64,000 nucleotides of DNA, from assembly GCA_004565275.1 (NCBI GenBank), contig SDOX01000011.1:25116-89115 (forward strand), in the 5' to 3' direction. Each line of letters starts with the position of its first letter. The stretch's first letter is position 1. This DNA comes from Nannochloropsis salina CCMP1776 (Eukaryota; Sar; Eustigmatophyceae; Eustigmatales; Monodopsidaceae). The notes beneath the pieces were generated by a model that worked only from the letters and a program-made list of their open reading frames with translations, did no database searches and was not told where the DNA came from. Positions 1,533 through 63,768 of this stretch are shown piece by piece. The position numbers and the translations under genes are program-made.

Positions 1533-2720
1533 ATGCTCTCGGTGTTGTCAAGAAATGTTCGCACTATCGGTGGATGGGACAGAAGAAGGATAGGTGGTGT
1601 ACTGCGGGCGCTGCCCCTGCTATCTTCACAATCACCATCAAGTGGTGCGACACCACCGGGAGAGCCGCGTATGGGAATAAGTGCCTCGTCAATTTTAGTT
1701 GCGCATTTTTCTACCGGCTCTTTCCTCAGTCTAAGTGACCTCCATGACAATCCAGGGGCTAAACGAGAGGTACGTGGACATGCACCCTTAGAGGGCAGCT
1801 TTTACCGGCCTTTCGAATGGAGGCCACGCTTCTCAACTAAGCAGGTTCTGTTTGTCACGCACTTTTTAACCCCCTCTACCTGCACAGCGCAAACGCGTGG
1901 GTCGGGGCATTGGTTCTGGATCCGGGAAAACGTCAGGCAGGGGCATGAATGGGCAGAAGAAACGATCGAGCGTGAACATCCCCCAGGGCTTTGAAGGCGG
2001 TCAGACGCCCATGCATCGCCGCTTGCCCAAGACAGGGTTCAAGAACATGTACGTACCACATATTTGCGCGGATTTTGCGAAGGGACGGGCGAATCCTTGC
2101 GTGTACACCTGTCTTGCACGCAACGCTGCCCGCTCTGTGGCACCTCCCGACGCTCGTTTTCACAACTCTCTTCCTTACCTCCCTAACCGTGACGACACAG
2201 CTGGGCGGAGCCTCTGACCCCACTCTTCGTTGGGACGGTGCAAAATTGGATCGACATGGGCCGTCTCGTGGTTCCTGCCGACCGCTTGATGACGATGAAG
2301 GACCTGGTGGACGCCGGGATCTTCAAAGCGAACAGAGTGAAGCACGGCATCAAGCTGTTGGCCCGAGGGGGCGAACACGTCCACACCCCTTTCCACATCG
2401 AGGTCTCCCGGGCATCTTTGGGGGCGATTGACGCCGTGGAGAAGGCGGGGGGAACTGTTACCTGCGTGCACTTCAACCGACTGGCCCTGCGCGCCTTGTT
2501 GAAGCCCGAGGCATTCCGGGTCCCCGTGCTGGGGGAGGACGGTCAAGTAGAGGAGACGTTGCAACTACCCAGACGGGCCCGGCCACCTCCCCGCTTGATG
2601 CCCCTTTACCTGGATAGTGACCGGAGGGGGTACCTGTCTCCCGAGGTGCAGCGGAGGAACAAGGGCCTTTTCAACGGCCAAGTCACGAGCGAGGAGATAC
2701 CCAAGCTGGCTTTGGATTAG
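1533..2720 (+). CDS. MRPL15: Mitochondrial (or organellar) large-subunit ribosomal protein uL15
   Basis: The gene has three predicted exons: 1533-1769, 1888-2052 and 2211-2720, all joined in phase 0. The middle exon carries the L15 signature [19 protein letters not shown] followed by [15 protein letters not shown]. The last exon begins in the strand reading [10 protein letters not shown] and contains the L15 fold segment GIKLLARG. Exon 1 contributes a basic, Ser-rich presequence (start [14 protein letters not shown]) and the family motif [10 protein letters not shown]. The product is 303 residues. Bacterial L15 is about 145, and the extra length at both ends is typical of mitochondrial uL15m. 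It would bind the large rRNA in the organelle ribosome. Targeting to mitochondria rather than the plastid is inferred from the presequence. In-frame ATGs exist upstream, so the start is a choice. It converges on IFT172 with a gap of about 140 bp. Confidence 0.88.
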
Positions 2721-2859
2721 GCTAATCAATGCTCTATAAAGAAAAAACATGCCCGGGAGATGTGCTGATGCGAATGGGAGCAAGTGAAAGCCGTCCAACT
2801 CGGAGTTGCTCCTTGTCGTAGGGTCGCGCAAAACAGGCTGTTCCCATTCTTTCTTTTTG

Positions 2860-5800
2860 TCAGGAAAATGTCGTTACTTTAGCCTTCTCCGCCATTTCAG
2901 TTATAGTATCTGATGGGCGTTTCCTTCCTGTCACGGGACACAAATGAAAGCTCTCCACCCACACATCCATATCCTGCCTCGCGGCAAGACACTCTTCATT
3001 CTTTGTACCCCATTCGGCTTCAAATACACCGACACGCCCCTCTTTCGAGGGTAAAGTATCCAACGGATAGCCAGTCAGGGCACACCATTTAACTCCTAGT
3101 CTCCTCGCCTGAGGCCCCGGAGCTGGGGAGTACAAGCCTTCGTACAAGGTGCCCGGCGCCTGCGCAGGGGATAAGATAGGCGTGGCTCTGGCCGTGCTTT
3201 TCGCGTCTTCGAATGGTGGGGATTCGAAGTCGGCACGCGCGTGAATCGCACACACGGACAAGATCCAATTCCTGGCTTCGTCCCTTGCTGTCTCCTTCAG
3301 GTAGTGCTGACCTGGGAGGGGGTGGGTGACCCGCGGCAAGGCTGTGAACTCAGCCAGGCCGGTAAGTTCGATCGGTGCGCCTTCTCCCTCCTCCTCCGCT
3401 GCCCCATCGCGACGTTTCTCCATCGCTCCCTGAAGCTTGTCCTCGATGGCTTCGGCCAGATCCACGTACCGATTAAGAAGAAGGAAAGCCAAATGATGAT
3501 AGGACAAGTTCAGCTCCTCGCTCTCCCCATTTTGAGCTCGACGACGAATCAGCGTCCCTGCCACGTAGTACGCTTTATCCAAAGGAATGATTGCGGGGGC
3601 ATACCGTAGCAGTGTCACCGCCACTTTGCAGGCAAGCGTTAGAAGAGGTACGTGAGGAGGGTTTGACAGCTCGCGTCTCCCTTCACCAACGGTCCTGGTG
3701 CCAGTAATGCCGCCAAGAAGTGTGAGTAGAGCTGTCAGGATGTGGGAATAATGCACGCACGAAAACATTTTCTCGAAATCCTCGAGTTTTTCGACGTCAT
3801 TTTTTTCTTGTATGTCTTTATCTCGTCTGCCAGCGGCGTCAACCTGGTTGCCTGTGACCTTTTCCGTCTTTTCTTCAATCGCCCGGTGTTGCCGTAAGGC
3901 TTTTAACAAAATTTGTCGTAGATCCCGGAGGAGCTTCCCCAGGATCTTGCCTTGTTGCAGCTCCTCTTCCAAGCTTTGATGGTAAAAAAGGGCCCGAAGC
4001 AATTTTCTATACAGATCAAGGTGAGTCAGAGGCGACGGTCCCCCGCTGGCCGTGAGGGCGCCAACAGCTTCTTCCACAACGTGCAATGAAATGAATTTCT
4101 CTATGCCAAGGATTTGCTGGACTTGAAAGGCGATCATATCGTCCCACAGAAGCTGCAGCAGTCCATTTTTTTTGTCACCGGTCCCGCAATTGTCCTTCTC
4201 TGCTTGGTGAGCAAGCATGCTGTAAACGTGCGTCCATTCTTGCCTCTGGCCGAGATACTCCAGGGCCTGTCGAAGGGGAGCTATATCTGCTGGGCCCGTG
4301 AGGGTCAGAATGTCATCATTGCCGGCCTGGACAGATGAGGGAGGGTCTGAACGATACGAGGAATCGGAGGGAGACTGAAGCGTTTTATTGCCCTCGGCGA
4401 CCGAGACAATGTGAGAAAGTTTGAATGGAAGGTAGCTGTGGGCGACCCGAAATGCATCCGGCCAAAGCTCCTGCTTCATGTACATTTTTAAAGCTTTTTC
4501 CGGCAGTCCCGCTTTCAGATAGAGAGACTCCGCCTCCTTCAATTTGAAAATCTTGATGGCTGTCTTATGATTTGAATACTTGAACCCGTTATGGGGCCGT
4601 GCTGGCTGGCCAATTAAAGCGTTCGCCTGGGCCTCTAGGACGGTGGGTAAGAAGGAAGGTTCGTACTCGTCCGCTAGCCGTCGGGCTCTCACGAAATCCT
4701 GCACCGATTCAGATACATACATTTTGATGGCATCGGCGGGGGCCTTGGCCAGCAAATATGATTCTTCCGCCTCGCGGTACAGACCGTGTTTTTGTTGGTG
4801 TCGAGCGTGCTGATGATGCACTGCTGCCGTTCGAGAAGGGAAACCAAGATCACATACTTTGAGCGCATACGCGAAGTCATGACAGGCCGTAGCGTGGTCG
4901 ATCGCAGATTGAATCTGATTGTGAGATGCGAGCAACTGCAAGCCTTTTTCAATGCCGAGGGTTTTGGCCTCGGCGTAGAGCGTTTCAACAGACAAGGAAG
5001 AGGAGTTTTTGCGATTCGAGATTGCAGGAGACGGTTCCTGGGGCTGTTCTAAAGCTGAAGAAGACGCTTTGCTATCGTAGACGTCAAGCGCCCCGCAAAA
5101 GGACCCTACAACCAGCCGTGTACCATCTGGGCTCCAGGCAAGGGCTGTGGCACTGTACATATTCGGTACATGATGTATGCCAAGCTGTTTTACAGGGACG
5201 GATTCGCCCGCTCCATCCGCGTTGCACGTGGCCTGCCCGCAAGAGTAGATGTACAGCGCATTGAAATTTGCAAGCACGAGCATGCGACCCGTTAGGGCTG
5301 CGCAGATGAACTCCCTGCAGGGTGTCGTGGAGGTGGAGTGGTCGTAGACGTGGAAGACGTGGCCTGACTCTGGGTTGTACAGAGCGACACGCCCATCGCT
5401 CCCCGCCGCTACTACCGACGCAGGGGTCCAAGCCAGGGCGAAAGCCGCACATGTATGCTGTGTTAGCACAGAAGAGGAAGAAGGCGAGGAAGTACTTCGC
5501 AGCGAATGTCGATAGAGGCGACCGTCGTAATGTGCTGAGATAAAAGCGCTTACGCCATCTGGATGCAGAGAAATAGCAACGACAAAGCTAGCGCCTAAGG
5601 AGGAAGCAAGCGCTGTAGATCGGTGGCGTTTCAGGTCGCCTTTTACTACCGTTCCATCAGCGAGTCCATAGACCAGGAAAGGATCTTCAGCAGCCAGCTT
5701 TGTCGGCCAGAGCAAGCATGTCGTGGGGATCGCGTGCAAAAATTTGTAACAAATACTTTTTTTGCTACCCCAATCGTGTCCAATCTTGTAAATGCATATG

Positions 5801-6156
5801 CTTCCATCCGTCTGTGCGACGGCTAATTTCGTTGAGTCCGGTGAAAAGGCCAATCCTTTGACAGCATATGATAAAGTATTTTCCATTTCCTTCATGCAGG
5901 CAGCACGGACACCTTTACAAGGGGTTCCGTCGGCCATTTTCTCTTCTTTTTTTTCCTCATTTTTTCTGGCACATTTTGTCAAAAATTTATCTTTTCTCTT
6001 TCCATCACTAGTATCGTACAGCCATATCATTCGGCTCCCGGTTGCAACCGCTACCTTTTTAGCGTCTGGTGACCAGGCGAGGGCCGTGATCTTATCCAAT
6101 GGATTAAAAGGCTCCAGGCAGCAGTGTCGCCAAGATTTCATGTGCTGTAGCACCAT
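2860..6156 (-). CDS. IFT172: IFT172-like intraflagellar transport protein, internally shortened
   Basis: One uninterrupted reading frame encodes 1098 residues. The N-terminus (MVLQHMKSW, then ITALAWSPDAKKVAVATG) matches the start of IFT172. The first WD40 propeller follows to about residue 390, including GLAFSPDSTKLAVAQTDG and GLADGTVV. After a Ser/Pro-rich linker the protein resumes directly in the late TPR region (AEAKTLGIEKGLQLLASHNQ). It continues to the typical C-terminus with PLDKAYYVAG, FLLLNRYVDLAEAIED, LPGQHYLKE and CALTGYPLD. IFT172 is normally about 1750 residues and has two propellers. The second propeller and the first half of the TPR solenoid are absent without any frame break. 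IFT172 is a peripheral IFT-B subunit in cilia. A 3' splice site (TTTTTTCAG) at about 6204-6210 suggests an upstream exon or 5' UTR intron; ATG at 6192 is an alternative start. Confidence 0.85.
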   Translation of the reverse strand: MVLQHMKSWRHCCLEPFNPLDKITALAWSPDAKKVAVATGSRMIWLYDTSDGKRKDKFLTKCARKNEEKKEEKMADGTPCKGVRAACMKEMENTLSYAVKGLAFSPDSTKLAVAQTDGSICIYKIGHDWGSKKSICYKFLHAIPTTCLLWPTKLAAEDPFLVYGLADGTVVKGDLKRHRSTALASSLGASFVVAISLHPDGVSAFISAHYDGRLYRHSLRSTSSPSSSSVLTQHTCAAFALAWTPASVVAAGSDGRVALYNPESGHVFHVYDHSTSTTPCREFICAALTGRMLVLANFNALYIYSCGQATCNADGAGESVPVKQLGIHHVPNMYSATALAWSPDGTRLVVGSFCGALDVYDSKASSSALEQPQEPSPAISNRKNSSSLSVETLYAEAKTLGIEKGLQLLASHNQIQSAIDHATACHDFAYALKVCDLGFPSRTAAVHHQHARHQQKHGLYREAEESYLLAKAPADAIKMYVSESVQDFVRARRLADEYEPSFLPTVLEAQANALIGQPARPHNGFKYSNHKTAIKIFKLKEAESLYLKAGLPEKALKMYMKQELWPDAFRVAHSYLPFKLSHIVSVAEGNKTLQSPSDSSYRSDPPSSVQAGNDDILTLTGPADIAPLRQALEYLGQRQEWTHVYSMLAHQAEKDNCGTGDKKNGLLQLLWDDMIAFQVQQILGIEKFISLHVVEEAVGALTASGGPSPLTHLDLYRKLLRALFYHQSLEEELQQGKILGKLLRDLRQILLKALRQHRAIEEKTEKVTGNQVDAAGRRDKDIQEKNDVEKLEDFEKMFSCVHYSHILTALLTLLGGITGTRTVGEGRRELSNPPHVPLLTLACKVAVTLLRYAPAIIPLDKAYYVAGTLIRRRAQNGESEELNLSYHHLAFLLLNRYVDLAEAIEDKLQGAMEKRRDGAAEEEGEGAPIELTGLAEFTALPRVTHPLPGQHYLKETARDEARNWILSVCAIHARADFESPPFEDAKSTARATPILSPAQAPGTLYEGLYSPAPGPQARRLGVKWCALTGYPLDTLPSKEGRVGVFEAEWGTKNEECLAARQDMDVWVESFHLCPVTGRKRPSDTITEMAEKAKVTTFS

Positions 6157-6959
6157 TTTCGCTCTGCTGAAAATTCGAAATTGCATGTTCATCTTAGAGG
6201 CGTCTGAAAAAACAAAGAGCGTTTTATAAAAATTGACGTGTTTTGTCAGCGAGGTTTTTTTGGGACTCCTCGCTCGTCGTCGCCGGTAACGGAAAGTCAA
6301 AAAAATAGATAGGGACACGCCGACACTCGTTGTATCCCCCCCCAAAAAAGAAGCTGACATGGAACCTTTTCTGAGTACGGAAGTGATGATATCTTGCGAA
6401 AATGGAATCGAGAGAGGTAATGCATGACCCAAAAAAGGATCTCTCTTGCTTCCACTAGGAACCTCCCCGTCGTGAACTCCTTCTATGCCAATTATTCCTC
6501 CAGGCAATATCAGTAAGCGCGCCCCACAAACCACACTTCATGTCACTTGAGCGGGCGCCGATATATCTATCGACATATTTGGTCTTTTCTAGCTCGAATA
6601 TTATGATCGGGAGTGCATGTGTCGTTGCAGAACACAACAGAAGCTATTTATGTGTTGATCTGCTACGAAGCAATCAAGGCGTTGCCTTCCATCCTGACAA
6701 TTATAAGCTCAACACCATCATCATCTCTTACATTTGTCAACACTGATAAACGGGCAATAAGTATTAGTCAGGTAATGAGTTCTACGTTTACTTTTGCATA
6801 ACAATCCAGGCATATGCACATATATGTCTTCAGAAAAATTCGAGGATGCTAAGATGTAGAAAACACTGGGGTGAGCATAATAAATCAGAGCAGGAATAGG
6901 GCACCATCACCATCAGTTAGTTATATTGTCTGCAGGGTTTAGTGAAAATGGAAAGGATG

Positions 6960-6966
6960 AAAAAAA
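6960..6966 (-). terminator. RNA polymerase III T-run terminator
   Basis: Seven consecutive T residues on the minus strand begin six bases past the tRNA discriminator base, as expected for a pol III terminator of the tRNA-Thr gene. Confidence 0.75.
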
Positions 6967-6972
6967 GGAAAT

Positions 6973-7044
6973 AGGCTCCGCCCGGGATTGATCCGGGGAC
7001 CTGTGCATTACAAGTGCACCGCTCTACCACTGAGCCACAAAGCC
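6973..7044 (-). tRNA. trnT: tRNA-Thr (anticodon UGU)
   Basis: The minus strand folds as a complete cloverleaf of 72 nt including the discriminator. The acceptor stem is GGCTTTG with CGGAGCC (two G-T pairs), the D arm is GCTC/GAGC and the anticodon stem is GTGCA/TGCAC. The loop is CTTGTAA, which gives anticodon TGT. The T arm is CCCGG/CCGGG. There is no intron and no encoded CCA. A T7 run follows as a pol III terminator. It reads ACA threonine codons in cytosolic translation. Confidence 0.93.
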
Positions 7045-8074
7045 GTGCAAACCAGTCTTTAGTGGAACTGCACAAATATAAAATTATATATCTGAGGTTT
7101 TACTTACTTGATTTCTGTAAATGCTATGGTGGCTGTCTGGTTATTTAAATCGCTCCTACGCCATCTGCACTTTGCCTGTGCAACGTAAGATCTCTGTTAC
7201 AGAAAGTGCAGTAGACAAATTGCTTACAAATAAGCAGGTCTTACGATTAATGATTTTTTGTTATGGACGTGTAGCCATGCCGCAAGAAGTTTGGAACAAT
7301 AATGTCAAAGCAACACCTCGATCCTTACATCCACCAAAATTCATCAATTTGATCACACAATAGATTTATCGACTCACGACTTGAAAACTGTAGCGCGGTA
7401 AAGGCATCGTCAGAGTTGTGTGATCGCCTTCGTTCACGCGTTACGTAACAAGACGCTTACAGCAACACTACGCGAGCCACAAAAAGTCGGAAAAGGTTTG
7501 TTTACTGCAAGGGATGCGGATAATAACGTTTTTGTAGACTTTTCGTGGATTTTCGCCACAAACAGGTGGCAAACATCTTCCGAAGCACTCAAAGAAAGAG
7601 GGGCGGAGCAGTCGAAGCCCCAAACGACACGGTGACAGGCGCAAACGAGAGGAAGCCATAAGGCCGCATTTAAATACGTAGTGGAGAGCAATAAAGATTA
7701 TCTGGGATTATTTGTAGTGAGAGTAACGTCGAGTCATCGAGTATCTCAACTCAACCTGACCACCGTGCAAGCTTGCTGAAAACTCTACAGGAGATAAGGC
7801 TGTCAAAAGTGATACCGATAGGAAAGCCTTCATCTCGAGAGCACTAAAAAAGGACTTATACGTGGTTTTCAGCCATCACATATGACAATAATTTACCAGT
7901 TAAGCCATGTGTAAGGTCATTCTGATAGTGTAACTCATACTAAATAGAATATAAAACACGCAAAATTCACCATTCATTGCGAGTCATCTACTTTGGGAGC
8001 CATACGAAATCTTGCACTCTCAATAAAAATTTGATTAAGAAATTATTTGTAGTGATCCTCATCATATAGAATCC
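7045..8074. other. Intergenic, no gene seen
   Basis: About 1 kb of AT-richer sequence lies between the tRNA and the first glycosyltransferase gene. The ORFs present (up to 85 codons) lack recognisable motifs and plausible splice partners. No repeat or RNA gene was recognised. Confidence 0.5.
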
Positions 8075-19702: not shown

Positions 19703-21656
19703 ATGGCTTCTTCCTCTGCCGATGCAGCCGCTGTCGTGGCAAGGAATGACGGGATGGAAGAGGATGACTTCCCTGAAGCCTCCCTGCGCAACATTATCGA
19801 GTCGGACCTAAAATGGATCTTTGTGGGTGGGAAAGGTGGGGTAGGCAAGACCACAACTTCTTGTTGTCTGGCCATCCAGGTGAGAATGTTTAGGGGCTGG
19901 ATCTGAGAAAGCGGTCACGGGGGGCTAAGCCTCGCGGTGACGCAAAGGCCAGACAGCCTTCTCCGAGATCCTTGTAACGGAGTCGAGCACCACCGTTCGG
20001 GGTAGCACTAGAGGGGCAGAAGGCAATAATAAGTGTAAACGTGTGGGGACCGTGCATTCTTCCGATCTCTCAAATCTTTTTGTTGCGCCGTCGTGCACAC
20101 ACATTCTACCTCCTACCAGCTAGCCAAAGTCCGGGAAAGCGTCCTCATCATCTCCACCGATCCCGCACACAATCTGTCCGACGCATTTGGTCAAAAATTT
20201 GGAAAAGAGCCTGGGAAAGTGGACGGGTTTGAGAATCTGTTTGTGATGGAGATAGATCCTTCCTTTGACTGGGAGGAGATGAACGCGATGGTGGCGCGGT
20301 CAGGGTCCATCCCGGGGGCAGAGGGTGAGTGTTCCCCCGCATCTTCTTTTCAGTCCGTCTCCCTATTATTTTGCCCGTGACGCTTTGGTCGTACCTTTAA
20401 TATGCCTGTAGCGGCTGTTGCATGCGCCTCGCCACCCACCTATCAGTCCAAATCACTCCCTCTGTGTCTCCCTCCCTCCCTCCCTCCCTCCCTCCCTACT
20501 TTCCTACCTCCCTTTCTTTTTTTAACCCCTATAGGCGAAGGCGGAGGCTTGCAAAGTATGCTTCAAGAGCTTACTTCCTCCATCCCAGGTATCGACGAAA
20601 TAATTTCGTTCGCGGAGCTCATGAAGCAGGTCGAGCAGATGGATTACTCCACGGTCGTCTTCGATACCGCCCCCACGGGCCACACCCTCCGCCTGCTCTC
20701 TTTCCCCTCCACCCTGGAGGGTGCCTTTGGGAAAATCATGGCCTTGAAAAACAAATTTTCGGGCCTCATGTCTCAATTTGGAAGCATGATGGGCCAGGCC
20801 CCCGGGGCGGAAGACGCCTTGCTCGGCAAACTTGACCAGACCCGAGATACTATCGAGAAGGTGGGAAGGGCGGGGAGCACGTCTGTCCTGGCATAGAAGC
20901 TGTCAAGCTCGCAGGCCTCTACAATTTCCTCCAAAATATCCTGATGAACAGTCTCGCATGAATGTGCTTTGGTGGGAGACCGTTTCTTGGCCCCCCTGGC
21001 TGGACTGACCGCATTTGACTACTCCTTTGAGGACCTCTGAGACAGACTCACGACCTGGTTGCACGTGTGCCCCTGTTTCATACTAGGTCAACAAGCAATT
21101 TCGAGACCCGCTGGCGACAACTTTTGTTTGCGTTTGTATTGCCGAGTTCCTCTCCATCTACGAGACGGAAAGGCTTGTGCAGGAGCTTGCCAAGTTTGAG
21201 ATCGACACGCACAACATCGTCGTGAACCAGGTGCGAAGCCGTTTTTCATCTCATCGTAGTCTCATTCCGGGTGCTCGAAAAGATTAGGCGGAGCATCAGG
21301 GGGCGTGACGTGTCAAAAGAAGTCTGCCGTGTAGGCTCATCTTGTTTCCCCTCCTTTTCTTCCTCTCTTTCCTCTTCTTCTCTCACGTGCTTTAGGTCCT
21401 TTTCCCTGACAAGGACGCTACGGAGATGTCGGCCTGGCATGAGAAGACCAAAGCCACGCTTCCGGGAGAAGCAAACGAGATCATCAGTAAATTCTTGGCG
21501 CGAAAACGGATGCAAGATAAATACATCAATCAAGTATTCGACTTGTATGAGGACTTTCATGTTGTGCTGATGCCGTTGCTCGACCACGAAGTCAGAGGTG
21601 TGGAGAGCCTTCGGCGATTCAGCGAAGCTCTGCTCACCCCTCCCGAGAATGAGTAG
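19703..21656 (+). CDS. GET3: GET3/ArsA-type tail-anchored protein targeting ATPase, CxxC-less
   Basis: Five predicted exons (19703-19879, 20120-20324, 20535-20860, 21087-21230 and 21396-21656) encode 370 residues. The deviant P-loop is [12 protein letters not shown], switch I is [16 protein letters not shown] and switch II is [33 protein letters not shown] and [10 protein letters not shown] complete the family signature. GET3 is a cytosolic dimeric ATPase that carries tail-anchored membrane proteins to the ER receptor. The N-terminus ([20 protein letters not shown]) looks cytosolic, without an obvious transit peptide. The zinc-binding CxxC that bridges the dimer is missing: where relatives have CxxCxAR before KMQ-KY, this protein has [14 protein letters not shown]. 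Such loss is known in plastid GET3 paralogues of plants. The second intron contains a CCCT repeat used as a pyrimidine tract. Confidence 0.9.
20469..20497. repeat. (CCCT)n tract in GET3 intron 2
   Basis: Seven consecutive CCCT/TCCC units lie in the pyrimidine-rich part of the intron, about 40 bp before the TATAG 3' splice site at 20534. Confidence 0.9.
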
Positions 21657-42778: not shown

Positions 42779-45413
42779 ATGGGTCGCCTGTGGTAAGTTG
42801 GACGAAAATCGAGCTAGGCTTCTTTTCATCACAATTAAGTCATTGTTACTCTCTCCATCAATTAGGAAGTGCGTAATTTTGATAGCGTGCCTCCGTATCA
42901 CCGCAGTTTCTAGACTCTCTGCCAATTCTCCGACCATTGAAGATTCAGTCGAGCAATCAATAGTGAGTCATGTACGTCAAGCATTGGGTGTCACCAACGA
43001 GACTAACACCACTGATCCAAGCATGCTTCGTGGTACTACTGAGAATATCAGAAAACGACATTTGGGTGGCCGTAGTCCGTGGCGCACTTTCCCATCTCTA
43101 GCACTTCCGACCTTTATGCTTGGAGATTCCGGCAATGGCGCTTCACCACCTCGCTTTCCTGCAGCGCAAGGAACTAAAGAGATCCAAATTGGGTGCGCTT
43201 GGAGTGCTACTGTAACTGCTGCCACATACAACCTGGCTTTCCCTGATTTAAACTGTGTCTATCAGGTTCTCTTGTACTGGGGCATAACAGAAAAGACAAC
43301 CTTACGGATTGACGGTCAATTTCCACACGTCCGTTATTTTTCGTACCAAAGTTACGATCTAGAAAATGGCGAGCCAATCGCCTCATTGATTGATTATGAA
43401 ATTGAGCCCTCGAAGGGGGTAAATCCCTTCCATGAAAGCCCTCAAAATAGCAGAGTATGGGGAACAGAACGGGAACAAGGGTTTGAAAGCAAGCGTCGCG
43501 ATATCTGGAACCGCTATTCAAGTGAGGAAAATGGAGGGTACCAAGATCGTAGTCACAATCAGGGTAAGGAAATGAGGTACATGGGACCTCGCGTCGAAAG
43601 CAGCTTGCTGGACAGTGAGACTAACAACGCGTATACTGATGCTTGGTCGCCTAACGAGCCACCTGACAAGCATACCTCCAGTGCTGGGCATTTTGGGTCC
43701 GATTCTGGGGAGGAAATTTTTGGCAGCTATCAAGTACACATTACAGATACTGGTCTCCATGGATTTCCTAATGAATTGGCAGCAAGCAGCAGCAGCGCTG
43801 GTCGTTTTAGCCATCAACAGTGTGGGGGCAAAGGTTGTCTCGCCTTGGTGATCCTGCGTCTCTACACTGCCGAACCAGGTGAAGATGCCTTTCGTCATCA
43901 TCATCCTAGGCGATACAGCGCTAAATCTCATGATTATAGTCGACTGTGGGGCTATGTCCCCCCACCGAAGGTCAGCGTGCGGTACGGAGAACGAATAAAC
44001 GAGTGGACAGGTTGGTCTGTACCAGCGCGGTACAAAGAACTTGGCCAGTGTCAGGAAGACAGATCCACTGTAGTGAGATCATTCTTGGACTGGAAAATAC
44101 CTCAACTAAAGCGTGATTGGGAGGGTCAATCTTCTTTAGACAATGTAGACGACAATTTTATAGTTTACACCCCCAGCACCTCAAGTCGCGCACTTTTTTC
44201 CAATGCTGACGCATCCTACCTCTTTGCGACGGCCAAGAACAATCGCTCTGTTTCCATTGGCGATCAAAGCAGCGGTCCGCAAAGGAAAGAGCTAGTGACC
44301 CGTATTACAGGCCATTTACCAACCGTCCCGCATGGCTTCATGGAAACTAATTATGATGATGAAATGCCTAGGAATCATGAAAACTATCACCGATCGTATG
44401 AAACAGAGCACACTTACCGTGCTATTGCCGACATTGATAGCTATGAAGCTCGCTATGTGTCACTGAGTACTATAGCCTTAAAGGGCGCCGGTCCTGTTGT
44501 TGACACAGTAATGGACACGGTCATTGAGCAAAAGTATCGGAAGCAAGAAGGTTGGGAGCAGACTCGGTACTTCTCCGTGGTAGCTGCTCCTGGAACAGGA
44601 CTTTTATCTCGTTGTCCTCCACGAGTCTATCAACAAGACCGTGACCTGTTCCTAAACACAGTTCCACCGGGACAAAGCGAACCGCCTGCGCACATGGCTT
44701 TTTTATACCGGCAGATCCTCTCCCAATGGCAGACAAGAGGCCGCATTGACAAATCCATTGCGCGTGCAAAGCACGAGTGTCTAGGTCGCAATGATGGAGG
44801 ACACGCGTGTAAACTTCGATCCTTTTTTATAAACAAGATGGGATCTCGCTATCCGAGCATTAAGTACTTTTATTGCTGGGAAAATGTTACACGTGGGTGT
44901 AGCTGTGAGGATTCTCAGGGCATACTAGTCACCTGGGAAGATATAGGAGAAGGCGATCACCAGTGGAGAGATTGGGCGCTCCCAGATTACTTCCACCACA
45001 GTCACCAAAGCACTTGGGGGGAGGACGACAACGCCGGCGTGAATGCGGATTTAATGCGATCCCACAATATTCAAGATAGAAACAAATGGAAACGTACAAT
45101 TCCAGCTGTCAACACAAGCGTTTCCACACCACTAAATGTTTCCAATGCTGAAAATGTAACAAGAACCGCCTCTTCTACGTCGACTAAACTTCTGCTCAAC
45201 GCATCTGCATTGTTTGTCCGTACGTCGCCGTACTCGTGGAACCAGACTCAAGCATACTACTACTATATGAAGCAAACACAGGAGAATCGCCCTCTCGTGA
45301 AAACCCAAAATCGTGACAATGAAACCTTCATGTCCTACCAAGACTCTATGGCCCCAGCACGATATAGTTTAGCGACAGAAAAGAATAGGAGCATTAGGAA
45401 TAACGAGCAATAA
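42779..45413 (+). CDS. Large secreted protein of unknown function (853 aa)
   Basis: A 14-nt first exon (42779-42792) and one large exon (42866-45413) are joined through a GTAAGT donor and an ATTAG acceptor. This gives the signal peptide MGRLWKCVILIACLRITAVS; without the small exon the frame has no nearby ATG. The mature protein has a block YWGITEKTTLRIDGQFPHVR-type sequence, with ARYFS/YVS-like strands recurring: VRYFSYQSYD near residue 160 and ARYVSLSTIAL near 540. It also has SLIDYEIEPSKGVNPF, several Cys pairs (CSCEDSQG, HECLGRNDGGHACK) and many N-x-S/T sites. I recall similar ARYFS/DYEI-P-GS-NP blocks in secreted algal proteins but know no function. The N-glycosylation sites and lack of a membrane tail suggest export. 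Composition is AT-richer than the neighbours. Confidence 0.65.
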
Positions 45414-47175: not shown

Positions 47176-47629
47176 GCTTGTGTACACTGGAGAACTTCAC
47201 CTCCCGGCCTTGCAAAACTCTGTCCTGTCCCGTCTATGGAAGACTATCGATGAGGAAAAAAAAATGACACACAGCATCAGGTCCAAGAAATCTTTTCGCA
47301 CAACCCACATCGAAGGACTTGTGCTTAGGCGCCCTGTCTACTACGGGCAACGACATAGTTCCAAGTCCTTCTGGCTTGTGGACGGCCAAAGCCGTTAAGG
47401 TCCGTTACGTGTCGGGCATGAGACGCCTCGGGCGTCGAATTCTAGGGCTGGCACGCGATCGCAATGCGAATGATCATGGTATATGGCGTATATGTGTTGA
47501 TAAGTGATGCCAGTTTAGGGCTAGACATCGCGATATAGTGGCATGTAAAGTCACCTCACTAACTGTGACAGTGATATCCTCATTTCCTTCCTCGTCAGCG
47601 GCTGTGACCAGGAATTGAATTGGACGTCT
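47176..47629. promoter_or_regulatory. Divergent intergenic region, aprataxin / TPR-like gene
   Basis: About 450 bp between two opposed starts. No coding motif. Presumed shared promoter region. Confidence 0.4.
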
Positions 47630-50600
47630 ATGCCACACAAAACTAGTAGAAGCGGCTCGGTCAAATCGAAGCCAACTACTTCAAATCAAGAAGGGAAAGA
47701 TTGTACATCGATAGCAGCCGCCAAAAGGGACGTCAATGTGTCTGGGGGCGTAAGTGAGACTAAGGCACATGCTCCTCCCTCTCTTCCCGAGGATACTCTC
47801 CTACCTCCTACCGCTGCGCCATCTGCGCCACCGGTGCCTGACAAGGCGGAAAGCAGGGCATTCGATCCTCAAAAGAATAACAATCGTAATCGGAAACCTG
47901 ATACGGGGTCTGTCACAGCTTCCGCGATGAAGAAGAAAAACGCCAGTAGCGACCATTCCGTCAAAGTGTCGGGGTTCTCTGCGCCCATTCTTGATTGGCT
48001 CAGCACAGGCTTCTTGCTCCAGGCAGCTGGAGCATCAACTGTCCTCAATAAATTTTTGACGGATTTATCGAAAGAGTACTTTGGCCAGGTACTCTTGCAG
48101 GTTCAACGTCAAGATGCCAAGGGGTTGCGGGAGGTGCTTATGCAGCACGCACAGGAGCCACGTGCAACAGCCCTTGGCGTCGGTATGTCTGCAACAGAGA
48201 ACAGCAGCGGCAGTAAAAGAAAGCTCGTCAAGAGTAAGGACAAGATCAATAAGAGGAACGGGAACGGGACCGAGCAGGTGGGGCTGACAGGGCCGAGCTC
48301 AGTCCTGGGTCCTGTCGCTCTGTCCTGGGAGAACACCACGCTCAGCCGCTTAAAACACCCAGTCAAAGGGGCTTGGGAAGCCGCGAAAATCTATGGCCCT
48401 TCTTTAGGACCTACCCCCCTGGCCCTTTCGGGGCAGGCGACCCCTGAAACGAGCGATCCCGACCTGAAGCTCGCCGTCCTCACCAAGTACAAGGCCTTTT
48501 CTCCCGTGCTTGACCCCTCCCTCACCTCCACGGCGGCGGCAACAGCGCAGGAGTGGGTGAAGTCTACCACCTGGATGAAGAAAGGTGGAGGAGGAAGGTT
48601 CGACAAAGCCTTGGACAACCTCTCGGCGCTGCTGAGCGGCATGGCAGCAGTCTACCCGTCTGTGCGTGCTGCCCTCCCCACCGCCCTCGAGGGTTTGCAA
48701 AAGGTCCAGGAGGTACGAAGCAGCTTAAGCAGTGGGGAGGAAGGGAAAGGGATGGGAAAAGAAGAGGTGGAAGGGCTGATTCGGTGGCGGGTGCGCAGGT
48801 TACTGTGTCAAGCTTGGGCCGGTCGAAAAGCGAAGGAGAAGGGAGAGGTTCTGGCTGCAGAGAATGCTCTGACAGCCTTACAGACAGCCATGGATGCCGA
48901 GGATGTCCAGGTCGGCGATTTTGTCCGGGCGTGTAGGAAGGAAGAAGAAACGAAGATCGAGACCGCCGACGCAAAGGGACAGGGGGGAAATGACAGCGAA
49001 GGGGTGGTGGATGGGAGAGGCGAGCTCTCTGAGAGGGCTGTGAGCAATAAAGAGGAGGAGGTGGAAGAGAGGACCAGCATGAGTGCAGCGGAAAGCAAGT
49101 CGGAGCAGCGCGCCTGGGAGGCTCACCTCAAGCATCACTCAGGCCTCTCTCAGGCCGTCGCCTCGCGCATTGCCGCCTTTCGACAGTGCTTGCAGGATGG
49201 CAAGGCCCAAGACGTGATCCGAGACGTCCTCCTTTTGCTTCGACAGCACCAGCACAAGGAGACTTGCCTCCTTCCCGTCGATGTGCACGTGTTGCAGGAG
49301 AATCTTGGCAAGGCGGCCTTGGTGGTGGGAAATCCGACCCTGGCCCTGTCGGCGCTCGACAAGGCGGGGAAGGTGGGCGTCTGTACTGAAGGGGACAACC
49401 CTACCCTGCCTCCTTGCGTGGAGTACTGTCCCCTGGCGCTGCGTTTGAAAGCCCTCGCATTGGAAGTCAAAGGAGAGGAGGAGGCGACCAAGCGGGAAGG
49501 GAGCGCGGAGGAGAAGACAGAAGACGAGCCGCACGCGACCGAGTTGGCACTGCACGTATTGGGGGACCTGAGGAAGGAGGATATAGAGAGAAACGACAGT
49601 GTGAGACGTGCGAGTTACTTGACCTCGGCGGCGGTGCATACGTACCACCGGCTCAAGCGCTTGAGCAATGGCGAAGGTGGCCAGGGAGAAGCTCCGGAGA
49701 AGACACGAGTTGTAGTGGAGCGAGGGCTTGGCCTCTTAGAGCAGGCGCGGGGCATGTTTGACGCGGACAGGAATGAGGAAGGGACAGAGGGTGGTCGATG
49801 GGTGAGCCTCGTCGATCCGAAATGGGTGTCCCTGTCCCAAGACGGAGACGCCATGCTCTGGATCCAAACCAACCGGTTGCTGGCCATATTTTATGCGGAA
49901 CCCTGCCTCGCTCCCTCCCTCCCCCATCACCATGACCTTTCCATCGCCGCCTACCAAGCTGCCCTCCTCCCTGCCGCCCACCTTTTAGATGGGACGCTGG
50001 AGGCCCATTCCATGGTTCATACGCTTCGATTTGAACTCGCGAGAGCCTACGCGCGGCGCGGTAAGAACGAGCAGGACGAAGCAACCTGCCTTGCCCTCTT
50101 GAGAGAGGCGGAAGCTGCTTTGCTGCCCTCGCAGAGGGAGGAGATGGGGCGGCTTTTGCATTACACCGGGCGATTATTGGAGGAAAAGGGTCGCAAAAAA
50201 CTGGAGGATGAGAATGAAGGCGGGGGCGAAAAGGAATTGCGGGAGGCAATAGAATTGTTTGGACGGGCTGTGGAGGCTTTCGAGGGTGTGCGGGCCAAGC
50301 CAAAGGGAGAGGAGGAGCGACTCAATTACATGATTGGATTGAACAAAAGCATGGCCGGCATCTATGTCACATTGATGAAGAGCATGGACAAAGGGTGTGA
50401 AGGCAGGTCCGACAGAACAGAAGCAGGTGAAGAAGGAGGGAAGGACAAAAACAGGCAGCAACAGCTGTCCGGGAAGCCCTCTTCCTTCCCCTCCTCGCCG
50501 TCTCTGTCGCCTCCCACACAGGCGATTTGGAACGCAGATTTGGAGAAAGCCATCAACAGGTACACAAATGCCTACACTCTCCTGAGTGCAGTGGCGGGAG

Positions 50601-51031
50601 GAGGCGGGAAAGCCTCCTTCGAAGCGGGCCAAGTAGCTTTTGCCATCGGAGACTTGTACTTGCAACGTCGGAAGGAAAAACGGGCGCGGAATGTTGAAAA
50701 TGCGATCGCTTGGTTTGAAAAAGCTGAGCGGGACATCCGCCGGAGCGCTCCAGATCGGAAGGATGCGAGTGGGCGGTACTTACCGTTGTACACACAATTA
50801 TACGGAAAGCTGGCTGGCTTGTGGCACGAGCGCGCGGGGTTGCGAAAAAAGGAGGGGGGAGGGAGCAGTGGAAAAGTGAAGGAAGATTTGAGAAAAGGGG
50901 AGGCGTACGGTGTACTGTTTACAAATGCAAGAAGAAATTACGAATTGCGGGCGGACGTGTTGGCGGGCAGGATGGCAGATGGACTGAGAGTAGAGGAAGA
51001 GGGGAAGGATAGGGGAAAGGAGGAGCGTTGA
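47630..51031 (+). CDS. Large TPR-like helical repeat protein, unknown function
   Basis: One open frame of 1133 residues from the first ATG (MPHKTSRSGSVKSK). The first 110 residues are disordered and basic. ILDWLSTGFLLQAAGASTVLN starts the folded part. From about residue 500 the chain is a series of amphipathic helix pairs of TPR type, such as NPTLALSALDKAGKVG, MLWIQTNRLLAIFYAEP, LRFELARAYARRG and SFEAGQVAFAIGDLYLQRRKE. Charged linkers rich in Glu, Lys and Gly lie between them. Such solenoids are scaffolds for protein complexes. No catalytic motif was seen, and I could not place it in a named family. The segment 50395-50521 is low in complexity and ends CCCACACAG, like an intron, but removing it would break the frame, so I leave it coding. 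Confidence 0.7.
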   Translation: MPHKTSRSGSVKSKPTTSNQEGKDCTSIAAAKRDVNVSGGVSETKAHAPPSLPEDTLLPPTAAPSAPPVPDKAESRAFDPQKNNNRNRKPDTGSVTASAMKKKNASSDHSVKVSGFSAPILDWLSTGFLLQAAGASTVLNKFLTDLSKEYFGQVLLQVQRQDAKGLREVLMQHAQEPRATALGVGMSATENSSGSKRKLVKSKDKINKRNGNGTEQVGLTGPSSVLGPVALSWENTTLSRLKHPVKGAWEAAKIYGPSLGPTPLALSGQATPETSDPDLKLAVLTKYKAFSPVLDPSLTSTAAATAQEWVKSTTWMKKGGGGRFDKALDNLSALLSGMAAVYPSVRAALPTALEGLQKVQEVRSSLSSGEEGKGMGKEEVEGLIRWRVRRLLCQAWAGRKAKEKGEVLAAENALTALQTAMDAEDVQVGDFVRACRKEEETKIETADAKGQGGNDSEGVVDGRGELSERAVSNKEEEVEERTSMSAAESKSEQRAWEAHLKHHSGLSQAVASRIAAFRQCLQDGKAQDVIRDVLLLLRQHQHKETCLLPVDVHVLQENLGKAALVVGNPTLALSALDKAGKVGVCTEGDNPTLPPCVEYCPLALRLKALALEVKGEEEATKREGSAEEKTEDEPHATELALHVLGDLRKEDIERNDSVRRASYLTSAAVHTYHRLKRLSNGEGGQGEAPEKTRVVVERGLGLLEQARGMFDADRNEEGTEGGRWVSLVDPKWVSLSQDGDAMLWIQTNRLLAIFYAEPCLAPSLPHHHDLSIAAYQAALLPAAHLLDGTLEAHSMVHTLRFELARAYARRGKNEQDEATCLALLREAEAALLPSQREEMGRLLHYTGRLLEEKGRKKLEDENEGGGEKELREAIELFGRAVEAFEGVRAKPKGEEERLNYMIGLNKSMAGIYVTLMKSMDKGCEGRSDRTEAGEEGGKDKNRQQQLSGKPSSFPSSPSLSPPTQAIWNADLEKAINRYTNAYTLLSAVAGGGGKASFEAGQVAFAIGDLYLQRRKEKRARNVENAIAWFEKAERDIRRSAPDRKDASGRYLPLYTQLYGKLAGLWHERAGLRKKEGGGSSGKVKEDLRKGEAYGVLFTNARRNYELRADVLAGRMADGLRVEEEGKDRGKEER

Positions 51032-62001: not shown

Positions 62002-63768
62002 ATGTCAGCTGAGGATGAGGAGCAGCGGAAGGTGCGTTGGTGGCATGTGTTGTAGCGGATTAATGGGCATGCCTTCTTGCAACAGAGATTCTAGCAGTCC
62101 TAGTAATATCACCCCTTGCCTCCTGCCCCCTATTCTTTCAGGGCCTGAAGCCAGTGGTGGATATAGCCACCGCCGTACATATCGCACACCAGATCTGGGG
62201 ACTACGTGTGGCAGACGATGACGACCCACCGCGCCCGCTTGAGTCCTATGACGACTGTAATTTTTACATGGTATGTCTAGTCTCGTCTCCTCACTCCCAT
62301 TCTTGATCTTTCGTTTATCCTGTAAAAAGTGCCTGCTTCATTCCCTTTCTCATTCCATCCATTGCATAACTTGGTGGCCGATGAAGCATTTTAAAACTTA
62401 TGGCCAACGATTTGCATTCCGTCACCCAGGATATCTCATCATCCTGCCGCTCACTGACCCCCTTTGTCACCCACCCAATCCACACAATTCCCGTGCCCCT
62501 AGCCCGGTATTTTGCCAGCCTCGCTTGAGCCTTCTCAACAACGCCATAAATACCTGCTTAAAATCCAAAACGGCGTGGAAAGTCGCACACCTGAGGTCCT
62601 GGCATTCCAGCACGCCACCATGGCGCGGTTGACCGCCGCTGGCCTTTCCTGCCCCCGTCCTGTCCCCCTCCCTCCTTCGGTCCCTCCCCCACGCCCTGCA
62701 TCCACACCTCCCAGCACAGAGAAAGCCATGCCCCCCGCCTCCTCCCACACCGTCTTCCACACCCTCCCCGTCCGGGTAGGACCCGCCACTCCCCTGGCCG
62801 TTCGTCTCTTCCATTGGGTGGAGGGTACCCCCCTCGTCGACGTCCCCTTCCCGCCCCTCCCTCCTCCTTCCTCCCCCCCTCCGGCCTCCCCCTCTCCCTC
62901 CCTCCCACCCCAGGCCGCCGCCCTGCTTGCAGCAGGGCGGTACCTCAGTCGTATCGAGCAAGCGCTCACGGGGTTCGACCATCCGGGTAGTCATCGTCGA
63001 CACATGTGGGACGTGCGTCATTTCGCCTCCTTAAGACCCTGGACCAGGTACCTCCCGGAAGAAGGCGGGAAGCGCGCCTTGGTCGTCTCGGTCCTTGAAG
63101 CCTTCGTGCGGGAGGTGGTCCCCGTGGCGGAGGGCGGGGGGAAGGGCGGGGGGGAGGACGGGGGGGAGGGCCTTCGGATGGACTCAAGCCAAGCAGGGGA
63201 GGAAAGGGCCATGGCTGGTTTTCGGGAGGGTGTGATCATGGGGGACTGGAACGACGCCAACATCATAGTGGCTCCAAGAGCCCCCTCCCAGGTGCGTGGA
63301 TTGATCGACCTGGGCGACGCTCTCTGGACCTGGCAAGTCAACGAGGTGGCCATCGCCATGGCTTACGCCGCCGTCTCTGCCCTGGGGAAAGCTTACCCCG
63401 TCCAGGCAGCGGCCTTGCTTTTGAGGGGTTGGGCGGCGGGGAGCTCGACCTTGCCTCAGAGGGAGGGGGCCCACCTCCGCACCCTGACATGCGCTCGTCT
63501 TGCCATCAGCGTCACCTTGGGTGCGTACTCCTTCGCGCAAAATCCTGAGAATAAGTATTTGTTGATCCATGCCCAGCCAGCCTGGAGCGCCTTGAGGACC
63601 TTGTGGGGATCGGAACGGAAGAGGGTGGAGGAAGTGTTTACGATGGCGTGGGAGGGAGGGAGGGAGGGAGGGAGGGAGGGAGGGGGGAAGGAGGAGGATG
63701 CGGTCTTCTGGGAGAGGATCATCTTAAAAGGCTTTCCTCTTGTAGGCGAGGAAAAAACAAATTGGTAA
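62002..63768 (+). CDS. HYKK: Hydroxylysine kinase-like phosphotransferase (APH fold)
   Basis: Exons 62002-62031, 62142-62270 and 62530-63768, all phase 0, encode 465 residues. ESYDDCNFYM and RHKYLLKIQNGVESRTPEVL match the N-lobe of AGPHD1/HYKK (SYDDQNF...LK), with Lys as the ATP-binding residue. MARLTAAGLSCPRP and VRLFHWVEGTPLVDVPFP follow. The catalytic loop is GVIMGDWNDANIIV and the metal site is GLIDLGDALWTWQVNEVAIA. In hydroxylysine kinase the loop reads HGDLNDHN, so the His has become Met while the catalytic Asp and Asn remain. The family phosphorylates 5-hydroxylysine with GTP in animals, so the substrate in an alga is uncertain. A Gly/Arg/Glu repeat near the C-terminus is encoded by GGGA units. 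Acceptor of exon 3 was chosen by phase. Confidence 0.8.
63650..63687. repeat. (GGGA)n repeat inside a coding exon
   Basis: About nine GGGA units encode a [10 protein letters not shown] peptide near the C-terminus of the hydroxylysine kinase-like protein. The period of four against a codon of three gives a 12-nt, four-residue protein repeat. Confidence 0.9.

What the first reader, a model, noticed from the sequence alone, without database searches (positions are those of the whole stretch)
2860..6156. A naturally shortened IFT172 lacking the second propeller and half of the TPR solenoid
The frame is continuous, yet the first WD40 propeller joins through a Ser/Pro linker (about 4980-5100) to the late TPR region. 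About 700-750 residues are absent compared with the 1750-residue canonical protein, while both termini are well kept. If the host makes no flagella, as reported for Nannochloropsis, an intact but reduced IFT172 would suggest a retained non-ciliary role. If it is ciliated, this is a minimal IFT-B subunit.
Basis: partly seen in the sequence, partly recalled or inferred. Interest (0 to 1): 0.8.

Follow-up and report, generated by a model that had tools for sequence, protein, structure and literature searches.

The report
Internally shortened IFT172 gene
This is an intact gene for a flagellum-transport protein (IFT172) that lacks a large, well-conserved middle part while keeping both ends, which makes it a useful case for asking which parts of that protein are needed and whether it can work without a flagellum.

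Summary
The minus strand at 2860-6156 carries one uninterrupted 1098-residue frame that is an IFT172 homologue: its propeller, TPR-block and C-terminal pieces each find IFT172 first among solved structures. Between propeller and TPR block about 770 residues (Chlamydomonas 321-1092) are absent: the second propeller, the published IFT80-binding segment (626-785) and close to half of the TPR solenoid. A 25-residue linker joins the two anchors. tblastn and HMM do not find the missing part elsewhere in the window. The lost propeller is the best-conserved of seven segments compared between human and Chlamydomonas (57%), so its loss is surprising. Propeller 1 has changed about as much as that of Chlamydomonas, though more than human; the kept TPR block is strongly accelerated, and residues 589-838 are unrecognisable. 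Kept are the parts that elsewhere bind IFT57 or membrane (propeller 1) and IFT-A (last TPR), plus a probable U-box-like tail. I read it as a genuine, reduced IFT172 that lost IFT80 docking. Host, flagella, other IFT genes and expression could not be tested (no genome held, no RNA). Nannochloropsis remains a guess; a published table counts 7 and 4 IFT-B genes in two Nannochloropsis species.

The parts
2860..6156 (-). IFT172-like coding sequence, single exon, 1098 aa (open frame continues upstream to 6534)
5068..6156 (-). first WD40 propeller (aa 1-363 = Cr 1-320)
   Evidence: PDB search of 5062-6156 alone: 8bd7_S E 4.1e-50, next best a generic WD40 protein at 1e-10; tblastn of Cr 1-320 E 3.3e-52
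5872..5961 (-). about 30-aa Lys/Glu-rich insertion in a propeller loop (aa 66-95)
   Evidence: alignment; likeness to the IFT80-binding segment tested and judged chance
4993..5067 (-). 25-aa Ser/Pro/Gln linker at the deletion junction (aa 364-388)
   Evidence: no similarity to either edge of the gap beyond shuffles in 4 tests of aa 361-400; codon score positive only in the coding frame. The human tblastn match does run through it (Hs 1-369 to 4939)
4408..4992 (-). kept TPR block (aa 389-583 = Cr 1093-1266)
   Evidence: PDB search of 4389-5010 alone: 8bd7_S E 3.4e-30 at Cr 1093-1266; IFT144 next at E 0.45
3643..4392 (-). diverged middle (aa 589-838), expected position of Cr 1267-1564, no reliable homology
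3256..3642 (-). last TPR with the published IFT-A (IFT144/IFT140) binding helices (aa 839-967 = about Cr 1565-1665)
   Evidence: pairwise hhalign of aa 839-1098 with Cr 1565-1743, E 2.2e-15; 9h2d E 4.8e-7; site from PMC13290226 (passages)
2863..3084 (-). probable U-box-like C-terminus beginning at the CxxTGYP motif (aa 1025-1098)

Best explanation
A genuine IFT172 gene that lost about 770 residues from its middle in one or more old in-frame events and has since been kept as a smaller protein. Shown: one open frame, colinear ends, absence of the middle from the window, a constrained propeller 1, an accelerated TPR block. Inferred: propeller 1 still docks on the IFT57 CH domain or, alternatively, on membrane; the last TPR can still meet an IFT144/IFT140-type partner; the U-box-like tail stabilises it; docking on IFT80 is gone. 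It would therefore act as a short two-ended tether (membrane or IFT57 at one end, IFT-A-like partner at the other) instead of a full-length strut of an IFT train. If the host has no flagellum, this would be a cell-body membrane-traffic role; if it has one at some life stage, a pared-down IFT-B2 peripheral subunit.
For: Open 1098-residue frame, P about 7.5e-16 by chance; codon log-odds positive in the coding frame and negative in the other two in 6 of 6 segments, linker included, and the coding frame scores highest in 22 of 22 slices of 150 bases (stops count -3, which lowers the other frames). Each of 3 pieces finds IFT172 first in the PDB. An HMM from human and Chlamydomonas: only this ORF of 1544 six-frame pieces passes the inclusion threshold (E 4.2e-102), with no domain from the missing middle. 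Changes unique to one sequence: propeller 1 window 55, Cr 41, Hs 30 (window vs Cr p 0.18); kept TPR 51, 11, 18 (p 2.8e-7 and 8.8e-5). Published functions: propeller binds IFT57, Cr 626-785 binds IFT80, Cr 1604-1669 is the modelled IFT144/IFT140 site (PMC13290226, passages); the N-terminal part binds membrane in competition with IFT57 (PMC6224603, passages). In the IFT-A site the residue equivalent to Cr L1615 (fla11) is kept, and the U-box positions equivalent to human I1688, F1715, P1725 read L, W, P (alignments).
Against: No transcript, no relative with the same deletion, no host identity, no IFT57 or IFT-A gene seen. Even propeller 1 has changed more than human (p 8.8e-3). Only 7 of 26 human=Chlamydomonas columns beyond the last TPR are kept. 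The U-box alone is not significant by phmmer (0.2 bits). The position equivalent to human D1605 reads E, which is a human ciliopathy variant. No IFT-specific Pfam model passes its cut-off (PF23387 17.9 of 25.6 bits). AlphaFold from the single sequence gave mean pLDDT 36, so no structural support.
Confidence: 0.55

Rival explanations
1. Decaying remnant: the host lost its flagellum, the gene is under little or no selection, and it merely has not yet gained a stop.
For: Accelerated TPR block and tail, unrecognisable stretch 589-838, several insertions, loss of the best-conserved segment. Decay of flagellar genes after flagellar loss is the title subject of PMC3471859, a downy mildew (search listing only).
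Against: No stop or frameshift in the 1098-residue frame while the kept parts have diverged deeply; in-frame codon signal in every segment; propeller 1 keeps 85 of 140 human=Chlamydomonas columns.
Confidence: 0.17
2. Functional minimal IFT-B subunit in a host that does build a flagellum at some stage.
For: Both interaction ends kept. In Tetrahymena, IFT172 lacking parts of the C-terminal solenoid still supports anterograde IFT (stated in PMC6224603, passages), so truncated forms can work.
Against: The IFT80-binding segment and second propeller, conserved from human to Chlamydomonas (48% and 57%), are gone; no other ciliary gene was recognised in the part of the window's ORFs that I scanned (8, 8, 10 and 10 entries, some the same ORF).
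Confidence: 0.15
3. Split gene: the missing half is encoded elsewhere as a separate polypeptide and the two work together.
For: The rest of the genome could not be searched. Spliced-leader trans-splicing is known in eustigmatophytes (PMC8570151, section 13), but that adds a leader at the 5' end.
Against: Not in this 64-kb window by tblastn or HMM; the junction lies inside an open frame with a coding linker, leaving no evident place for joining in trans.
Confidence: 0.06
4. Assembly collapse or a deletion private to one sequenced strain.
For: Not excluded without reads. A collapsed repeat would leave one copy, which a repeat scan of the window cannot see.
Against: The join is not a clean join of canonical residues: a 25-residue linker without demonstrable homology lies between, and the frame is kept. 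No tandem or simple repeat is reported at the linker.
Confidence: 0.07

Closest known systems
IFT172 (Chlamydomonas 8bd7 chain S; human)
   Same: Propeller 1, a TPR block, last TPR with IFT-A site, CxxTGYP tail, same order
   Different: Lacks Cr 321-1092: second propeller, IFT80-binding segment, close to half of the TPR solenoid; 589-838 unrecognisable; extra loops
Experimentally truncated IFT172 (Tetrahymena; Chlamydomonas constructs in PMC6224603 and PMC13290226)
   Same: Show that parts of IFT172 act separately
   Different: Those seen in the passages are man-made truncations of one end; this is a natural internal gap that keeps both ends
IFT-B genes counted in aflagellate Nannochloropsis (PMC6610115, Table 4)
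   Same: Precedent for IFT subunits kept without flagella (IFT-B 7 in N. oceanica, 4 in N. gaditana; IFT-A 2 and 0)
   Different: Counts only; candidates filtered for full length; the text I saw does not name IFT172; host of this window unproven
WD40-TPR coat relatives (IFT144, IFT80, COPI)
   Same: Propeller plus solenoid plan (recalled, and PMC6224603 passages)
   Different: Not listed, or far weaker, than IFT172 in each of 3 pieces

Membership tests
IFT172 | N-terminal WD40 propeller (IFT57 docking) | tested here: met
   8bd7_S E 4.1e-50 for the piece alone; binding itself not tested
IFT172 | second WD40 propeller (Cr about 321-625) | tested here: not met
   no convincing hit in the ORF or elsewhere in the window; Z at most 0.5 against all 6 pieces of the protein
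IFT172 | IFT80-binding segment (Cr 626-785) | tested here: not met
   no colinear match. Cross-scores Z 7.9 (propeller 1) and 6.9 (TPR block); the first was followed: the insertion alone is matched by 368 of 1000 shuffles against whole Cr, 724 against whole human, 41 against Cr 626-785 alone, 564 against its human counterpart; the second I take for a TPR cross-hit
IFT172 | long TPR solenoid | tested here: inconclusive
   Cr 1093-1266 met; Cr 786-1092 absent; Cr 1267-1564 not recognisable
IFT172 | last TPR with IFT-A binding helices | tested here: met
   hhalign aa 839-1098 vs Cr 1565-1743 E 2.2e-15; Z 17.5; binding itself not tested
IFT172 | U-box-like C-terminal domain | tested here: inconclusive
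   CxxTGYP and a PVTG end match; Z 5.8 but 0.2 bits by phmmer alone
IFT172 | member of an IFT-B complex acting in a cilium | not testable with these tools
   no genome, RNA or protein data for the host
other WD40-TPR coat proteins | closest sequence relative is IFT80, IFT144, WDR35 or COPI | tested here: not met
   IFT172 is first for 3 of 3 pieces; IFT144 only E 0.45 for the TPR piece; only proteins with solved structures were compared

The most novel reading that the evidence does not exclude
An alga without flagella has kept a stripped IFT172 as a short cytoplasmic tether: the membrane/IFT57-binding propeller stays constrained, the IFT80 dock and half of the rod are discarded, so IFT172's membrane role is separable from train building and more general than the cilium.
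Probability: 0.3. Interest if true: 0.75.

Novelty: new variant of a known kind. Interest (0 to 1): 0.52.

Why it matters
[quoted passage not shown] A natural form that drops its best-conserved propeller and its IFT80 dock but keeps both ends is a ready-made deletion experiment. It makes testable which contacts (IFT57, membrane, IFT-A) suffice, and, if the host lacks flagella, whether IFT172 has a job outside cilia.

Tried and rejected
Pfam alone does not name the protein IFT172: general WD40 models dominate and TPR_IFT80_172 stays under its cut-off. A global three-way alignment misplaces the C-terminal half because of the gap, so piecewise alignment was used. hhalign of the whole protein ran through the gap (856 columns on Cr 1-901, 781 on Cr 869-1743) and was not used to place it. 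A resemblance of the propeller-1 insertion to Cr 626-785 (Z 7.9) was followed as a possible moved IFT80-binding piece and rejected: 368 and 724 of 1000 shuffles do as well against whole Cr and whole human, 41 of 1000 against Cr 626-785 alone, 564 of 1000 against its human counterpart. Derivation of the linker from the edges of the gap: 81 to 409 of 500 shuffles do as well in 4 tests, although the human tblastn match extends across it. An unspliced intron in the propeller insertion was looked at by eye only. The repeat scan of 2500-7200 (4 direct families, 4 inverted pairs, none inside the linker) cannot test a collapse, and short microhomology was not tested. Structure prediction: mean pLDDT 36, not used, no fold search made. 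Host: spliced-leader sequences of three eustigmatophytes (from PMC8570151, section 13) were looked for; none above shuffled controls, which says little because the paper counts 24-239 such genes per genome. Tandem repeats cover about 1.3% of the window, below the 12-21% simple repeats reported genome-wide for Monodopsis and Vischeria, but methods differ and one window cannot decide.

Literature: ten searches of the held open-access library. Nannochloropsis + intraflagellar transport (13 papers); IFT172 + eustigmatophyte (0); Eustigmatophyceae + IFT + flagellum + loss (2); IFT172, non-ciliated, gene loss, at least two (60, 30 listed); Nannochloropsis + flagellar + genes + IFT (4); IFT172 + U-box + TPR (1); IFT172, stramenopile, diatom, IFT-A, at least two (1,567, 25 listed); Monodopsis + Vischeria + flagell + genome (4); IFT, retained, aflagellate, algae, cytokinesis, at least four (41, 15 listed); IFT172 and eustigmatophyte names, at least two of five (544, 5 listed, these 5 with no IFT172, which does not exclude IFT172 lower in the list). 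I saw no shortened natural IFT172 in these listings and the passages read; supplements could not be opened. The general idea of non-flagellar use of IFT genes in non-flagellated algae is already stated in PMC13360157 (passages), and reviews of non-ciliary IFT roles appear in the listing.
Full report
What is there. On the minus strand, one open frame runs from 6534 down to 2860. The frame looks coding throughout: codon log-odds trained on seven other window ORFs are positive in the coding frame and negative in the other two in 6 of 6 segments, including the linker and the propeller insertion. In 150-base slices the coding frame is the highest in 22 of 22; it is itself slightly negative in 2 of 22 (5856 and the last slice, which holds the stop). 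Stop triplets count -3, which lowers the other frames. An open stretch of this length has probability about 7.5e-16 by the window's stop frequency.

What it is. Searched whole against the PDB, the protein finds Chlamydomonas IFT172 (8bd7_S) at E 6.1e-72 and the human IFT172 C-terminus (9h2d) at 5e-6; the other 3 of 5 hits are generic WD40 proteins. Cut into three, each piece finds IFT172 first: propeller 4.1e-50, TPR block 3.4e-30, C-terminal half 4.8e-7 to the human chain and 0.38 to the Chlamydomonas one. Pfam is less specific: no IFT model passes its cut-off.

Where the gap lies. Residues 1-363 correspond to Cr 1-320, 389-583 to Cr 1093-1266, and 839-1098 to about Cr 1565-1750. Hence Cr 321-1092, about 772 residues, is absent between the first two anchors. 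By the published map this removes the IFT80-binding segment 626-785 (PMC13290226, passages), and with it the second propeller and, taking the solenoid as roughly 626-1669, some 467 of 1044 TPR residues (my arithmetic). The 25-residue linker between the anchors is not shown to resemble either edge of the gap (81 to 409 of 500 shuffles do as well in 4 tests), although the tblastn match of whole human IFT172 extends across it, to Hs 369. tblastn of the missing segment, from human and from Chlamydomonas, finds cross-hits to the kept TPR block (best E 1.9e-7 and 3.5e-7) and otherwise nothing outside this ORF better than E 2.8. An HMM from both sequences against 1544 six-frame pieces finds this ORF alone above threshold, with domains at the kept parts only. 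A segment-by-segment table against 100 shuffles gives Z 84 (propeller 1), 41.5 (TPR block on Cr 1093-1266, against 13.0 on Cr 786-1092 and 6.9 on 626-785), 17.5 (last TPR) and 5.8 (tail). Residues 589-700 reach 3.9 at most (on Cr 1401-1565) and 701-838 reach 1.1; hhalign finds nothing for that stretch.

How it has evolved. Human and Chlamydomonas share 45% in propeller 1, 57% in Cr 321-625 (propeller 2), 48% in the IFT80-binding segment, 43% in Cr 786-1092, 55% in the kept TPR block, 32% in Cr 1267-1564 and 42% in Cr 1565-1743. So the lost part includes the best-conserved segment. Counting changes unique to one of the three sequences (a star tree is assumed), propeller 1 of the window has 55 against 41 (Cr, p 0.18) and 30 (Hs, p 8.8e-3). 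The kept TPR block has 51 against 11 and 18 (p 2.8e-7 and 8.8e-5). The last TPR has 21 against 11 (p 0.11) and 6 (p 5.9e-3); the tail 19 against 6 (p 0.015) and 9 (p 0.087). Three sequences are few, the human one is recalled, and the columns of 584-838 are not reliable. The simple reading is that propeller 1 still does its work while the rod has been relaxed or retuned.

How it may work. In Chlamydomonas the N-terminal propeller binds IFT57, and the N-terminal part binds and remodels membrane in competition with IFT57 (PMC6224603, passages; PMC13290226, passages). [quoted passage not shown] Counterparts of all three are present here in order, the U-box least surely. The residue equivalent to Chlamydomonas L1615 (the fla11 site) is kept; the one equivalent to human D1605 is E, the residue of a human ciliopathy variant. 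The U-box positions equivalent to human I1688, F1715 and P1725 read L, W, P (alignments). IFT80 docking must be gone unless re-evolved. The anatomy is shown; the tether role is inference.

Host. No genome is held for the window. One protein scan each of viral and prokaryotic contigs found no relative. The window is eukaryotic by content: a uL15-type gene whose exons join across a GT-AG intron (read by eye), HIT/C2HE (aprataxin-like, my naming), SNAP, RWD-RBR and histone deacetylase genes, a tRNA-Thr; G+C 52%. If it were right, IFT relics in such algae are partly in print: Guo et al. list 2 IFT-A and 7 IFT-B genes in N. oceanica, 0 and 4 in N. gaditana, no BBSome (PMC6610115, passages and section 9). 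RABL2 is missing there (PMC4736243, passages). Flagella-related homologues are reported in Monodopsis, in which zoospores were never documented (PMC8570151, passages). Against a general rule, pennate diatoms, also without flagella, do not seem to keep IFT genes (PMC5654045, passages). PMC13360157 states that several IFT genes in non-flagellated algae were co-opted for other processes (passages), so the non-ciliary idea as such is not new.

Verdict. It is a reduced variant of IFT172, not a canonical member: two defining features (second propeller, IFT80-binding segment) were tested and not met. Whether it serves a flagellum, a non-ciliary job, or is on its way out cannot be settled here.

Noticed in passing
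window 1981-2720 (+): A uL15-type ribosomal protein gene (Ribosomal_L27A; mitochondrial by my reading) lies tail-to-tail with the IFT172 gene; by eye a GT-AG intron at about 2049-2200 joins two coding exons in frame.
   Followed up: partly
window 6973-7044 (-): tRNA-Thr (TGT), found by ARAGORN and Rfam, upstream of the IFT172 gene.
   Followed up: no
window 20402-20896 (+): ArsA/GET3-type ATPase exon (ArsA_ATPase, E 6.4e-30).
   Followed up: no
window 42798-45413 (+) and 47615-51031 (+): Two long open frames (871 and 1138 aa) without any Pfam match at the thresholds used.
   Followed up: no
window 62512-63768 (+): ORF with a match to the APH phosphotransferase family (E 4.6e-11); function not examined.
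   Followed up: no
window 5872-5961 (-): Lys/Glu-rich insertion in propeller 1 shares DGT-x4-VRA with the lost IFT80-binding segment of Chlamydomonas; judged chance.
   Followed up: yes
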